DNA of 64,000 nt. Source: Candidatus Bathyarchaeota archaeon. Lineage in GTDB: Archaea > Thermoproteota > Bathyarchaeia > Bathyarchaeales > Bathycorpusculaceae. The notes under the pieces are model-generated. The model did not search any database, was not told the origin of the DNA, and saw only the letters and a list, made by a program, of their open reading frames with translations. Numbering within the stretch: position 1 is the stretch's first letter; every line of letters begins with the position of its first letter. Of this stretch, positions 5,584 to 11,781 are shown one piece after another. Both the position numbers and the translations under genes were made by a program. The DNA lies in NCBI GenBank assembly GCA_029881805.1, contig JAOULW010000003.1, positions 62,001 to 126,000 on the forward strand, in the 5' to 3' direction.

Positions 5584-6951
5584 ATGGTCAAACAGAAAAG
5601 CAGAATTCCAGTGGCTATTTCAATTGCCGGAAGCGATTCTGGAGGAGGCGCAGGAATTCAAGCAGACCTCAAAACTTTTGCAGTGTTAGGCGTTCATGGA
5701 ACGACGGCAATAACCGCAGTCACAGCACAGAATACCATGGCCGTTGTTTCTGTCGAAGATTTGAAGCCTGAAATGATTCGAACCCAAATAAGAGTAGTGG
5801 CGGAAGACCTAGGAATTGATGCGGGAAAAACAGGAATGCTCCACACGAGGGAAATAATCAAAACTGTTGCGGAAGAGGTCTCAAAGTATAGGTTTCCTTT
5901 AGTTGTTGACCCAGTTATGGTTGCTAAATCCGGTTCGCCATTGCTGATTCCCGAAGCCGTGGATGCTTTGAAGAGCTATCTTCTGCCAAAGACTACCGTT
6001 GTAACACCGAACAGATTTGAAGCTGAAAAACTGGCAGATGCGAAAATTGAAGAACTCAAAGACGTGGAGAACGTGGCTAAAAAAATTTCGATGATGGGAC
6101 CTAAAGCCATCGTTATCAAAGGTGGACACTTGGAAGGCAAAGAAGCAATTGACATCTTGTATCATGAAGGCAGAATCAAGACATTTAAAGCTCAAAGAAT
6201 CGACTCTAGAACAACGCACGGGACTGGCTGCAGCTTCTCAGCGGCCATAGCGGCTGAGCTTGCCAAGAAGACACCAATACCGGTCGCTGTTGAAAAGGCC
6301 AAGGAAATTGTTACATTGGGCATAAAATTTGGATTGACTATTGGAAATGGTTATGGGCCTGTTAATCCTTTGGCTCATCTCTATCGTGAATCCTCACGTT
6401 ATAGTGTTTTGATGAATGTAGAAAATGCCAAGAAGTACATCGAAGCATCACCTGAGGCCGTGGTGCTCGTTCCAGAAGTCGGCATGAACATTGCTATGGC
6501 AATTCCGTATGCAGAAAACATTAAAGATATAGCAGCGATAGAGGGCAGAATCGTTAAAACTCTTGAAGGAGCGAAAGCTGTAGGTAACGCAAAATTTGGA
6601 TGCTCCTCCCACTTGGCCAAATACATTCTTGAAATCCGCAATCACGACGAAAGGAAGGTGGCGGCAATAAACTTCAAATTTTCCGAGAAAATTCTGAAAA
6701 TTCTGGAGAAGCGGGGTATGATTATTTCCTTCTATGATAGAAGAGAAGAGCCTGAAAAAACAAAAAAAGTTGAAGGAATGACCATTCCTTGGGGTGTAAA
6801 AGAGGCCATAAGAAGAATCAAAAAAGCCCCAGACGCCATTTACCATAGAGGAGACGTAGGCAAAGAGTCCATGATAGTCCTTTTCGGTGAACAAGCGTTT
6901 GAACTAGCTAATCTCGTCACAAAAGTTGCAAGTGAAGTTGAAAAGGAATGA
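5584..6951 (+). CDS. thiDN: Bifunctional HMP/HMP-phosphate kinase and ThiN-type thiamine-phosphate synthase
   Basis: The 455-residue product is a two-domain fusion. Residues 1 to about 260 are ThiD, a ribokinase-fold kinase, with AGSDSGGGAGIQADLKTF near the N-terminus and the anion-hole motif THGTGCSFSAA. It phosphorylates HMP and HMP-P. Residues from about 275 to the end are a ThiN domain (VPEVGMNIAMAIPYA, GNAKFGCSSHLAKY, HRGDVGKESMIV), the archaeal replacement for ThiE that joins HMP-PP to thiazole phosphate. ATG 5584 follows the cytX stop by one base; the open frame extends 11 codons further up inside cytX. Expression should follow the TPP riboswitch. Confidence 0.95.
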   Translation: MVKQKSRIPVAISIAGSDSGGGAGIQADLKTFAVLGVHGTTAITAVTAQNTMAVVSVEDLKPEMIRTQIRVVAEDLGIDAGKTGMLHTREIIKTVAEEVSKYRFPLVVDPVMVAKSGSPLLIPEAVDALKSYLLPKTTVVTPNRFEAEKLADAKIEELKDVENVAKKISMMGPKAIVIKGGHLEGKEAIDILYHEGRIKTFKAQRIDSRTTHGTGCSFSAAIAAELAKKTPIPVAVEKAKEIVTLGIKFGLTIGNGYGPVNPLAHLYRESSRYSVLMNVENAKKYIEASPEAVVLVPEVGMNIAMAIPYAENIKDIAAIEGRIVKTLEGAKAVGNAKFGCSSHLAKYILEIRNHDERKVAAINFKFSEKILKILEKRGMIISFYDRREEPEKTKKVEGMTIPWGVKEAIRRIKKAPDAIYHRGDVGKESMIVLFGEQAFELANLVTKVASEVEKE

Positions 6952-8894: not shown

Positions 8895-9773
8895 TCACTT
8901 CTTCACCTCTAACAAGACGAAATCCACAATTTCGTCAGCAATGTTGACTTTCGTTACTGATTGTAAGCCTCTCCAGCCTGGTTGACTGTTTACCTCAACA
9001 ACTAGTGGACCCTTAGGGCTTTCTAGGATGTCGACGCCAGCAATTTTGCATTCGATTAATTTAGCTGATTTGACAGCTAAATCTTCAAGTGTTTTTTCAA
9101 GTTCTATGGGTTCGGGGCGTGCTCCTTGACTGTAGTTGGTTTTCCAGCTGGTTGCGATACGCCGCATTGCAGCAACAACACGGTCGCCAATGATGAACGC
9201 TCGAATGTCAGAAAAGCCATGGGGAACAAATTCTTGGATATATATAATCCCGTGATAAAACGTTATAGAGCGGAAGATCGTATGAGCAACTTCTGGATCC
9301 GTGACGCGTGTTGCGCCTATTCCTCTGGAGCCAAACAGAGGTTTGACAACAACATCTCCTTCAAACTCGTTAAAAGCTTTAAGCGCCTCATTGACGCTTT
9401 CAGTTACCGCTGTACGTGGTACAGACACGTCATTATCTTCCAATATTGCCAGAATGTCATATTTGTCGACACAGTGCTCAATCGCCTCTGGGGGATTTAT
9501 GATGTATAAGCCTAGCCGTTGAAGCCTGTAGAGCATGTCCATCCTGAAAACTATCTCTTCTAAAGAACCTCGTCCAATTGGACGGATTACTAAAGCATCT
9601 AAATCTTCCAAAACACCAACGTCACCGATGTTTAAGAGGGGTTTGTATCCCACACGAGCAACCACCTGGGGGAAGCTGAAGCATATGTAGAATATGTTGT
9701 GTCTTGTCAAAGATTCTTGAAGCTGGGTTGAAGTCCAAGAGTTTCTGTTTCGTGTTATAATTCCAGTTTTCAA
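8895..9773 (-). CDS. RimK-family alpha-L-glutamate ligase (MptN/CofF-like)
   Basis: This 292-residue ATP-grasp protein has the RimK layout: an N-terminal pre-ATP-grasp domain, VVKPLFGSRGIG as the ATP-binding loop, IYIQEFVP, DIRAFIIGDRVVAAMRR, and the metal-binding end VVEVNSQPGWRGLQ. In methanogens the closest relatives add glutamate to tetrahydromethanopterin (MptN) or cap coenzyme F420 (CofF). Both would make sense beside the C1 genes here, but the sequence alone does not separate them from other RimK-type ligases. It lies 12 bases upstream of fdhD on the same strand, a probable operon. Confidence 0.85.
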   Translation of the reverse strand: MKTGIITRNRNSWTSTQLQESLTRHNIFYICFSFPQVVARVGYKPLLNIGDVGVLEDLDALVIRPIGRGSLEEIVFRMDMLYRLQRLGLYIINPPEAIEHCVDKYDILAILEDNDVSVPRTAVTESVNEALKAFNEFEGDVVVKPLFGSRGIGATRVTDPEVAHTIFRSITFYHGIIYIQEFVPHGFSDIRAFIIGDRVVAAMRRIATSWKTNYSQGARPEPIELEKTLEDLAVKSAKLIECKIAGVDILESPKGPLVVEVNSQPGWRGLQSVTKVNIADEIVDFVLLEVKK

Positions 9774-9934
9774 AAAGGAACCTTCCGAGGTTTTGAATCT
9801 GTGAAAGATGCTGGTGAATTAGGTTCTTAAAGTTTCTGTGCAGAAAACAAAAACGATTTCTATCGTGGCTCCTTTCTCACCCTAAGTCCGTTTGTTTGTA
9901 CCAATCACTTAAAATTAGCAACCGGGCATATTCT

Positions 9935-9949
9935 AAACTCGTCGAGTTT
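9935..9949 (+). promoter_or_regulatory. Short perfect stem-loop upstream of the rRNA methyltransferase
   Basis: AAACTC and GAGTTT form a perfect 6-bp stem around GTC, about 50 bases before the TTG start at 10001. A TATA-like CTTAAAAT lies at 9908-9916, so the stem-loop would be close to the 5' end of the transcript or just at the start site. It could be an operator or a leader hairpin, or be chance. Confidence 0.3.
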
Positions 9950-10000: not shown

Positions 10001-10825
10001 TTGAAAGGTGACGAATCAGACAAGAAAAAGCAGCTTGACCAGGTGGTCAATGCCGTCTTAAAAAGCCCAAAATACAGGAATGTTTGCGATGACCTAATCA
10101 AAAATATTGGTGCCCAAGAGCTTTCAAAACAAAAAAACATCAAAGCAGCCATAAAATCTACGAAGAACAAGTTGCATCAGATAGCCGGTGCCTATTTCCC
10201 AAAGAAGCCAGACTATTGCTTATGGTTGAATAAACTAAGAGCAGCAAAGAAATCGAGGAGTGAGGAGTTATTTCGCAAAGTTTGCGCAGATATAATGCTT
10301 TACCACTATTCAACTAGAGAACGGCTGAATATTTTAGACGAGTTTTACGCGAGAATTTTTTCGCTTCTTCCCGCTATTAATTCCATAGTGGACGTCGCTT
10401 GCGGATTCCATCCGCTTTCGATCCCTTGGATGCACCTACCTCAAAGGGTTAGATACTATGCTTATGATGTTTACAAGGATATGATACGCTTTCTAAACGA
10501 GTTTATGGCTCTCAATGAAGTCCAAGGATGTGCTGAGGTTATGGACGTGGTACAAAAGACACCAGAGATTAGTACCGAATTGGCTTTTGTTCTTAATACC
10601 ATACCGTGTTTTGAGCAAATTGAGAAATCAGCCGGATTGAAGGTTCTGGAATCTATCAACTCGAATTTTCTTGTTGTTTCTTTTCCAGCTCATACGCTTG
10701 GAGGAAGAGAGAAGGACATGCGGAGGCATTATGAGGCTAGATTTGGCGAGTTGACGGAGAAAAAAAACTGGATTATCCAACGACTAGAATTTAAAACGGA
10801 GCTAGTTTTTCTAATTACAAAATAG
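10001..10825 (+). CDS. Homologue of 16S rRNA (m7G1405) methyltransferases (ArmA/Rmt/FmrO family)
   Basis: The 274-residue protein follows the FmrO/Arm/Rmt family over its full length. The N-terminal helical region has SPKYRNVCDDLIK, AQEL and KLHQIAGAYF. It is followed by STRERLNILDEFY and the SAM-binding loop VDVACGFHPL near residue 130. The C-terminal block VVSFPAHTLGGREK...M...HY...F is diagnostic of the family, as is ELVFLIT at the end. Known members methylate N7 of G1405 in the 30S A site and confer high aminoglycoside resistance. TTG 10001 is preceded by GAGAGG at suitable distance. It stands alone, with no resistance or mobile genes beside it. Confidence 0.88.
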   Translation: MKGDESDKKKQLDQVVNAVLKSPKYRNVCDDLIKNIGAQELSKQKNIKAAIKSTKNKLHQIAGAYFPKKPDYCLWLNKLRAAKKSRSEELFRKVCADIMLYHYSTRERLNILDEFYARIFSLLPAINSIVDVACGFHPLSIPWMHLPQRVRYYAYDVYKDMIRFLNEFMALNEVQGCAEVMDVVQKTPEISTELAFVLNTIPCFEQIEKSAGLKVLESINSNFLVVSFPAHTLGGREKDMRRHYEARFGELTEKKNWIIQRLEFKTELVFLITK

Positions 10826-10836
10826 ATTCAGCTCTT

Positions 10837-11766
10837 TTAAAATCTATGAATATATGGGATTAGTTGTTCTGCCTTCTCGAATTTTTCGGAAAGGTCCACA
10901 TCCAAATAGGCACCATGAAGATTGAAATACGGCGGTCCTTTCCGAGAAAATAAGGTTAGAACCTTTCCTCCATGATCGATTTTGAAGCCCTCTTCGCAGG
11001 GCTCATGCCCTCTTATCAAGATTTTGACATTAAATCTTCTTAGCGCATTGTTTGTTGCGTTTTCACCATATAGTTTTCCTGCGCCTCTTGGAGACGCACA
11101 TGTATCTCCGATAATTTCATTTGGATCGCTCCAGAGCATATCCTCAAGAAGCCGTTGTTTTGGATGTTTAGTGTGGGCGTACGCCAAATCCCCTATAGTT
11201 TTGGCTTGTGGGGGTAAGCCTCCGTGAACCATTAGGTAACGTTCTTCAACCAGCACTCCAAGATAAAGGAGCGAAAAAAATGTGCGAATTTTACCATACG
11301 CTTCCGTCCATTTTTCGCCGAATTTGGCTTGAAACTCGATTGGCAAGTCGTGTGGAGAAGCTAAAAGGTCTTCTGGTCCCTCATGGTTTCCTCGCATCAA
11401 GATGATTTGTTCTGGAAAAAGCAGTTTCAACTTAAAAATTGTGTAATAAACTTCTACTGAGAGTTCGCCGCGGTCACCATAGTCCCCGAGGAAAATTAGA
11501 ATCGCTTCGCCTTCTTGGTTCATTTTTTGCAGAAAATTGCTTTCTTTTAGAATTTGGATTAGACTTTCTAGGTCTCCGTGCAAATCGCCAACTATTAGTG
11601 CCTTGCCTAAGGGCTTTAGTTTGACAAGTCTTCCGAATATGTCTAAACTTCCAATTTTTCCATTTTCTTCAGAAAGCAGTTGTGTAGTCGATTCAAGAAT
11701 TCGGACAAAGCCTTCATGATTAGTTTCCAAGGCTTCTTTGACAATTTGCGAAAGGTCGGCCTGCAA
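10837..11766 (-). CDS. PPP-family serine/threonine protein phosphatase
   Basis: The three metal-binding signatures of PPP phosphatases are present: GDLHGD at about residue 60, GDYGDRG at about 95 and RGNHEGP at about 125. VHGGLPP and RGHEP follow. The enzyme should remove phosphate from phospho-Ser/Thr (or Tyr) proteins with two metal ions. I chose TTG 11766 because GAGGAG lies 7 bases before it; the frame is open to another TTG at 11781. It directly follows the coiled-coil gene on the same strand, and its ribosome-binding site overlaps that gene's end, so the two are likely co-expressed. Confidence 0.9.
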   Translation of the reverse strand: MQADLSQIVKEALETNHEGFVRILESTTQLLSEENGKIGSLDIFGRLVKLKPLGKALIVGDLHGDLESLIQILKESNFLQKMNQEGEAILIFLGDYGDRGELSVEVYYTIFKLKLLFPEQIILMRGNHEGPEDLLASPHDLPIEFQAKFGEKWTEAYGKIRTFFSLLYLGVLVEERYLMVHGGLPPQAKTIGDLAYAHTKHPKQRLLEDMLWSDPNEIIGDTCASPRGAGKLYGENATNNALRRFNVKILIRGHEPCEEGFKIDHGGKVLTLFSRKGPPYFNLHGAYLDVDLSEKFEKAEQLIPYIHRF

Positions 11767-11781
11767 TAAGCTACTCCTCAA

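What the first reader, a model, noticed from the sequence alone, without database searches (positions are those of the whole stretch)
10001..10825. Archaeal homologue of ArmA/Rmt-type aminoglycoside-resistance 16S rRNA methyltransferases
Blocks along the whole protein (SPKYRNVCDDL, KLHQIAGAYF, STRERL, VDVACGFHPL, VVSFPAHTLGGREK) follow the FmrO/Arm/Rmt family closely. Known members come from aminoglycoside-producing actinomycetes and resistant pathogens. Finding one as a solitary chromosomal gene in an archaeon, with no mobile element beside it, suggests either an old housekeeping role in modifying the 30S A site or a reservoir lineage of this resistance family. A short stem-loop lies about 50 bases upstream.
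Basis: partly seen in the sequence, partly recalled or inferred. Interest (0 to 1): 0.85.

Follow-up and report, generated by a model that had tools for sequence, protein, structure and literature searches.

The report
Bacterial-type ribosome methyltransferase acquired by archaeon
An archaeon carries a gene for a ribosome-modifying enzyme of the family that makes bacteria resistant to gentamicin-type antibiotics; its lineage took the gene from bacteria fairly recently, and its own ribosomes already look resistant to most of those drugs, so its job there is an open question.

Summary
Window 10001-10825 (+) encodes a full-length FmrO-family protein (Pfam E 8e-55; Sgm 3lcu E 5e-47; model TM-score 0.89 to Sgm) in an archaeon. 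The "old housekeeping gene" reading does not hold. Within the host's family (91 genomes) only two genomes have an intact copy, and a third keeps a 78-codon remnant at the same place. In 19 relatives the two flanking genes lie 68-122 bp apart with nothing between (empty site). The tree nests the archaeal pair in a Chloroflexota/Poribacteria clade, so it is a bacterial gene inserted in this lineage and already decaying in one species.

Classic gentamicin/kanamycin resistance is also an awkward reading. The host's 16S A site has G1408, which by itself blocks most 6'-amino aminoglycosides. Both archaeal proteins also replace a lysine found in all 49 bacterial homologues compared (K199) with Asn. 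The likeliest function is still N7 methylation of G1405 in 30S subunits, as an accessory trait.

The unexpected lead is in the bacterial relatives. The gene is coupled to a dedicated tRNA-guanine-transglycosylase paralogue: 68 of 68 Chloroflexota genomes with that paralogue also have FmrO, against 9 of 332 without it. I found no published description.

The parts
10001..10825 (+). FmrO-family (Arm/Rmt-type) putative 16S rRNA (guanine-1405-N7) methyltransferase, 274 aa, TTG start
   Evidence: structure model pLDDT 89.9, pTM 0.87, TM-score 0.89 to Sgm 3lcu
9935..9949 (.). perfect inverted repeat AAACTCG-T-CGAGTTT, 51 bp upstream of the start codon; possible operator, not conserved in the G006 orthologue
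9774..9841 (-). conserved leader/promoter region of the rimK-like gene (GTTCTTAAAGTTTCYGTG); left edge of the insertion lies just beyond it
   Evidence: similar sequence in the empty-site genomes L103, L106, L109 and in G006
8895..9773 (-). RimK-like ATP-grasp ligase, host gene flanking the insertion
   Evidence: Pfam RimK E 3e-33; co-oriented with the phosphatase and 68-122 bp from it in 19 relatives lacking the methyltransferase
10837..11781 (-). calcineurin-like (Ser/Thr-type) phosphoesterase, host gene flanking the insertion on the other side
   Evidence: Pfam Metallophos E 7e-25; homologue found in 55 of 91 family genomes

Best explanation
The gene is a horizontally acquired, stand-alone FmrO-family RNA methyltransferase. 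An ancestor of this archaeal lineage took it from a Chloroflexota/Poribacteria-type bacterium, and it landed between a phosphatase gene and a rimK-like gene, on the opposite strand. The protein binds SAM and most likely docks on the mature 30S subunit through its N-terminal helical domain, flips G1405 of helix 44 into its active site and methylates N7. It is an accessory trait: kept under purifying selection in two genera, lost in a sister species. Because the host ribosome carries G1408, which already blocks most 6'-amino aminoglycosides, the benefit is most likely protection against decoding-site inhibitors that G1408 does not stop (6'-hydroxyl 4,6-linked types, or unknown natural products), or tuning of decoding. 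Shown here: homology, fold, acquisition, patchiness, G1408. Inferred: enzymatic activity, G1405 as the target, the benefit.
For: Family and fold. Kept: S104, T105, E107, R108, D131, G135, D156, D182, P229, R236, M240, Y244, E267. Loop 234-237 is the only low-confidence segment, in the region where RmtC is reported to have a loop that orders on 30S binding (own knowledge of the RmtC-30S work, not re-read here). Acquisition: archaeal pair 100/100, sister to a Poribacteria protein 95/91, inside the Chloroflexota set 87/97; closest named hits Poribacteria 51%, Chloroflexota 44-46%, actinomycetes 32-37%. Empty site: phosphatase-rimK gap 68-122 bp in 19 relatives, against 1066 bp in the host, 1003 bp in G006 and 364 bp in G405. 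Accessory: 2 of 91 intact, remnant in G405. Selection: dN 0.22, dS 1.8; changes at codon positions 1/2/3 are 25/13/51%. Target present: G1405 intact in host 16S. In bacteria the homologues often sit beside RsmI, which modifies C1402 of the same helix.
Against: K199, Lys in 49 of 49 bacterial homologues compared and directly after strand beta-4 (the motif IV position), is Asn in both archaeal proteins and in the G405 remnant. The protein is below the curated cut-off of the m7G1405 equivalog model. No activity, expression or rRNA modification data exist. With G1408 the resistance advantage is uncertain.
Confidence: 0.6

Rival explanations
1. Changed-specificity enzyme: after transfer the protein lost or altered G1405 methylation (K199N at motif IV, N137H, G239D) and now modifies a different nucleotide of the archaeal 30S subunit or another RNA.
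For: Archaea-specific replacement of K199, universal in the bacterial set, shared by both genera and the remnant; a host A site that differs from the bacterial one at 1408 and 1409-1491; score below the equivalog cut-off.
Against: The rest of the catalytic and RNA-contact pattern and the fold are kept; purifying selection; several bacterial homologues also score near or below the cut-off.
Confidence: 0.2
2. Plain aminoglycoside-resistance gene: m7G1405 protects the archaeon from environmental 4,6-linked aminoglycosides, exactly as Sgm/ArmA/Rmt do in bacteria.
For: Closest solved structure is Sgm, a self-resistance enzyme; patchy, acquired, dispensable distribution typical of resistance genes.
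Against: Host and all 38 family genomes with the site have G1408; in a bacterial 1408G mutant the neomycin MIC rises from 0.8 to >720 uM and paromomycin from 1.6 to 51-102 uM (PMC3942853), so most classical drugs of this class should fail already. No producer cluster or mobile element nearby. The nearest bacterial relatives sit in a housekeeping-like operon with a TGT paralogue.
Confidence: 0.15
3. Old archaeal housekeeping modification enzyme.
For: A second, very divergent FmrO-like family does exist in some archaea (L006, L007, L008), and Nanoarchaeota are reported to share a homologue of Sgm (PMC3655853).
Against: This copy groups with bacteria, not with the divergent archaeal proteins; empty site in relatives; absent from nearly all of the phylum.
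Confidence: 0.03
4. Assembly or binning artefact: a bacterial contig piece joined to an archaeal genome.
For: Closest outside relatives are bacterial.
Against: Contig of 184 kb with archaeal neighbours; orthologue (69% identical) in the same syntenic place on a 1.46-Mb contig of another genome, and a remnant there in a third; gene GC 40% against 42% for the window.
Confidence: 0.02

Closest known systems
Sgm (Micromonospora 16S rRNA m7G1405 methyltransferase, PDB 3lcu/3lcv)
   Same: Full-length alignment, 32-34% identity, TM-score 0.89, nearly the same residue numbering, kept SAM-site residues
   Different: Sgm is a producer's self-resistance gene acting on A1408 ribosomes and has K199; the archaeal protein has N199, sits in a G1408 host and branches with Chloroflexota/Poribacteria
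ArmA / RmtB-RmtF acquired resistance methyltransferases
   Same: Same Pfam family; 25-29% identity in plasmid records
   Different: Separate branch; those genes are plasmid- or transposon-borne, this one is chromosomal between host genes
Chloroflexota/Poribacteria FmrO proteins linked to a TGT paralogue (e.g. Thermosporothrix hazakensis, L014)
   Same: Closest relatives, 44-51% identity over the whole length
   Different: They are in an operon with a dedicated TGT paralogue and keep K199; the archaeal gene is alone
Divergent archaeal FmrO-like proteins (L006, L007, L008; Nanoarchaeota reported in PMC3655853)
   Same: Share the S..ER and D..(C/S)G..P blocks, and the K of motif IV in two of three
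   Different: Barely alignable; lack the SFP..TLGGR..M..HY block, having SLVKR.(D/E)I..RE instead; a separate clade, 99/98. Whether the Nanoarchaeota protein belongs here was not tested

Membership tests
Pfam FmrO (PF07091) | Score over the curated gathering cut-off across the whole domain | tested here: met
   186 bits against 27, positions 2-254 of 255
16S rRNA m7G1405 methyltransferases (Arm/Rmt equivalog, NF000466) | Score over the curated equivalog cut-off | tested here: not met
   216 bits against 250; orthologue 235.6; Thermosporothrix 254.9 passes
16S rRNA m7G1405 methyltransferases (Arm/Rmt) | Fold: helical N-terminal domain plus Rossmann SAM domain as in Sgm/RmtC | tested here: met
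   TM-score 0.89 to Sgm, 0.72-0.78 to RmtB/RmtC/RmtF
16S rRNA m7G1405 methyltransferases (Arm/Rmt) | SAM-site residues (R108, D131, G135, D156, D182) | tested here: met
   All kept
16S rRNA m7G1405 methyltransferases (Arm/Rmt) | Lys199 after beta-4 (49 of 49 bacterial homologues compared) | tested here: not met
   Asn in the window protein, in G006 and in the G405 remnant
16S rRNA m7G1405 methyltransferases (Arm/Rmt) | Catalyses m7G at G1405 of 30S | not testable with these tools
   Needs biochemistry; only the presence of G1405 in host 16S was checked
Acquired aminoglycoside-resistance genes | Confers aminoglycoside resistance in its host | not testable with these tools
   Host A site G1408, U1409-A1491 makes the classical phenotype doubtful
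Acquired aminoglycoside-resistance genes | Linked to mobile elements or producer clusters | tested here: not met
   Neighbours are host genes; no transposase among those examined within about 9 kb on either side

The most novel reading that the evidence does not exclude
The environmental FmrO family is not primarily a resistance family. It is half of a two-enzyme guanine-modification module with a dedicated tRNA-guanine-transglycosylase paralogue (TGT2), acting on the decoding region or on tRNA (for instance N7 methylation marking or activating a guanine that TGT2 then exchanges, or the two acting on neighbouring positions). The resistance enzymes Sgm, ArmA and Rmt would be uncoupled offshoots, and the archaeal gene an independently uncoupled, re-tuned copy (K199N) working on G1408 ribosomes.
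Probability: 0.3. Interest if true: 0.8.

Novelty: new variant of a known kind. Interest (0 to 1): 0.55.

Why it matters
It shows a bacterial resistance-type ribosome methyltransferase crossing into archaea, with an empty site, a decayed copy and a bacterial sister group, in a lineage whose ribosomes should already resist most of the drugs concerned. That asks directly what m7G1405 enzymes do outside the clinic. The TGT2-FmrO pairing in Chloroflexota gives a testable answer to where the clinically important Arm/Rmt family came from and what its original role was.

Tried and rejected
Viral origin: scans of viral contigs found one unrelated methyltransferase fragment (L005) and nothing else; phage records match only an armA-like gene in two contigs labelled as an Acinetobacter phage. 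Upstream stem-loop as a conserved regulatory RNA: not conserved in G006, fold z -0.34, no Rfam hit. Defence-system membership: no PADLOC hit for the methyltransferase, a weak DpdA hit for TGT2. TGT partner in the archaeal host: only remote, archaeal-type TGT hits of about 30% identity in G000, G006 and G405. Clean vertical descent within the archaeal family: the flank tree neither supports nor rejects G000+G006+G405 as one clade (p-AU 0.26), so one gain with vertical descent and spread by recombination between genera both remain possible. Literature: the Sgm and RmtC mutagenesis and structure papers were not held; no held paper found on FmrO with TGT.

Full report
What is there. Window 10001-10825 (+) is an intact 274-codon ORF starting at TTG. 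It matches Pfam FmrO end to end (E 8e-55), the NCBIfam generic Rmt model (E 5e-64; 216 bits, below the curated cut-off of 250) and, among solved structures, Sgm (E 5e-47), RmtB, RmtF and RmtC. An AlphaFold2 model from an 8-sequence alignment is confident (pLDDT 89.9, pTM 0.87). Its best PDB matches are Sgm (TM-score 0.89, rmsd 1.7) and then the other Rmt enzymes, including the RmtC-30S complex.

Host. The genome (2.2 Mb, 39 contigs, 100% complete) gives an archaeal 16S rRNA, split over two contig ends. Around the gene are a tRNA synthetase, thiamine genes, FdhD, a RimK-like ligase, a phosphatase, MCH and a formylmethanofuran-dehydrogenase-like subunit (the last by eye), a normal archaeal neighbourhood. 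I could not name the organism. It belongs to a family of 91 held genomes in a large archaeal phylum; from the A-site type and the C1 genes I would guess Bathyarchaeia within Thermoproteota (inference, not tested).

Origin. In the host family only G000 (the window) and G006 (another genus) have an intact gene. The two proteins are 69% identical. In a sister species of G006, G405, the same place holds only the last 78 codons. In 19 other family genomes the phosphatase and the rimK-like gene lie next to each other, co-oriented, with 68-122 bp between them, and in those read the rimK leader (GTTCTTAAAGTTTCYGTG) is intact. In the host the gap is 1066 bp, in G006 1003 bp, in G405 364 bp. The gene was thus inserted between two host genes, on the opposite strand. 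In a 54-protein tree the archaeal pair (100/100) is sister to a Poribacteria protein (95/91) inside the Chloroflexota set (87/97), away from the actinomycete/Sgm clade and from the ArmA/Rmt group. The deeper branches carry long tips, so I rely only on the local placement. The flank tree neither supports nor rejects a clade of G000, G006 and G405 (p-AU 0.26), so one gain followed by descent, or later exchange between genera, both fit. Third codon positions changed most (51% against 25% and 13%; dN 0.22, dS about 1.8, near saturation), which means the protein is under purifying selection where it survives.

Residues. Compared with 49 bacterial homologues, the window protein keeps L58, H59, S104, E107, R108, D131, C134, G135, P138, D156, D182, P229, M240, Y244 and E267; R236 is invariant in the three-way alignment with Sgm and the G006 orthologue. 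It departs at K199, Lys in 49 of 49, which is Asn in both archaeal proteins and in the remnant. In the model it directly follows strand beta-4 (192-198), the usual motif IV position of Rossmann methyltransferases (the motif assignment is my inference). N137 is His and G239 is Asp in both archaeal proteins; D193 is Glu in the window protein. I recall mutational work on Sgm at several of these sites, but the papers were not held, so I make no claim about K199.

The host's A site. Host 16S reads CACACCGCCCGTCGTTCCACC: G1405 is present, but 1408 is G, not the bacterial A. All 38 family genomes with the site, including G006 and G405, have G1408. Among 30 relatives read on both strands of helix 44, 1409-1491 is U-A in 23 and C-G in 7; the host is U-A. 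In a bacterial test system 1408G raised the MIC of neomycin from 0.8 to >720 uM and of paromomycin from 1.6 to 51-102 uM, because a guanine there rejects the 6'-amino group and tolerates 6'-hydroxyl better (PMC3942853). The archaeon should therefore already be insensitive to most gentamicin/kanamycin-type drugs, and a textbook resistance role is doubtful. m7G1405 enzymes also cost fitness and fidelity in E. coli (PMC12406665), so retention under purifying selection implies some benefit.

Bacterial context. Of 400 Chloroflexota genomes, 77 have a homologue. In most loci with enough flank, a tRNA-guanine transglycosylase gene lies immediately upstream, often with RsmI, the C1402 methyltransferase. 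This TGT (TGT2) is a paralogue: each Chloroflexota genome checked also has a separate, canonical-looking TGT at 34-40% identity. TGT2 keeps the DSGGFQ, QGG, FD..PTR and most zinc-site residues but has GGWPL(D/N) where the canonical protein has GG(L/I)(S/A)VGE. Of the same 400 genomes, 68 have TGT2; all 68 also have FmrO, and none of the 323 genomes without FmrO does (Fisher p 2e-67, not corrected for shared ancestry). In 55 of 68 the two genes are within 300 bp, always co-oriented. The actinomycete and archaeal genes lack this partner. I found no paper on it, within a library that holds only open-licence articles.

Mechanism. Most likely: SAM-dependent N7 methylation of G1405 on assembled 30S subunits (family knowledge plus fold and residues), as an accessory trait. 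Shown: family, fold, acquisition, decay, G1408, K199N. Inferred: activity, target, benefit. Rivals are changed specificity (K199N), plain resistance, old housekeeping (largely refuted) and artefact (refuted).

Comparison. It works like Sgm/Rmt as far as sequence and fold show, and it belongs to Pfam FmrO. It should not be filed as a proven m7G1405 resistance enzyme: the equivalog cut-off and the lysine, universal in the bacterial set, were tested and not met. Archaeal FmrO homologues are not wholly new: Nanoarchaeota are reported to share a homologue of Sgm (PMC3655853), and a divergent archaeal family appears here too. What is new is a well-documented bacterial-type copy in a G1408 host, and the TGT2 link in its bacterial relatives.

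Noticed in passing
L012:2320-3402 (+) with L012:3403-4224; L014:4893-6011; L015; Chloroflexota genomes: A dedicated tRNA-guanine transglycosylase paralogue (TGT2, GGWPLD motif) co-occurs with and mostly abuts FmrO methyltransferase genes in Chloroflexota and Poribacteria; 68 of 68 TGT2 genomes have FmrO.
   Followed up: partly
L015:4009-4896 and 5986-6798; G527, G591, G623, G713, G734, G766, G778: Several Chloroflexota carry two divergent FmrO genes in tandem or around TGT2, as if the module used two methyltransferases.
   Followed up: no
L006:1255-2172 (G405), L007:1279-2208 (G359), L008:1381-2178 (G160): A second, very divergent FmrO-like family in archaea of the same phylum, with a different C-terminal motif (SLVKR.(D/E)I..RE); function unknown, possibly an older archaeal RNA methyltransferase.
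   Followed up: partly
G000:C12:57832-57852 and 37 other family genomes: The whole archaeal family, as far as the site was found, has a eukaryote-like G1408 in the 16S A site, with 1409-1491 as U-A or C-G.
   Followed up: yes
L017:6924-7577 (Streptoalloteichus tenebrarius); L015:3372-4067; L012:1635-2318: RsmI or RsmI-like genes (C1402 2'-O-methyltransferase; confirmed by family model for L012 and L015 only) lie next to FmrO genes in several phyla.
   Followed up: partly
L011:1489-1725 (G405): Decaying FmrO remnant: the last 78 codons remain at the syntenic site, the 5' part is deleted.
   Followed up: yes
G000:C31:68-945 and G000:C12:57727-58356: The host 16S gene is split across two contig ends at about model position 830-857; probably an assembly break, but an intron was not excluded.
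   Followed up: no
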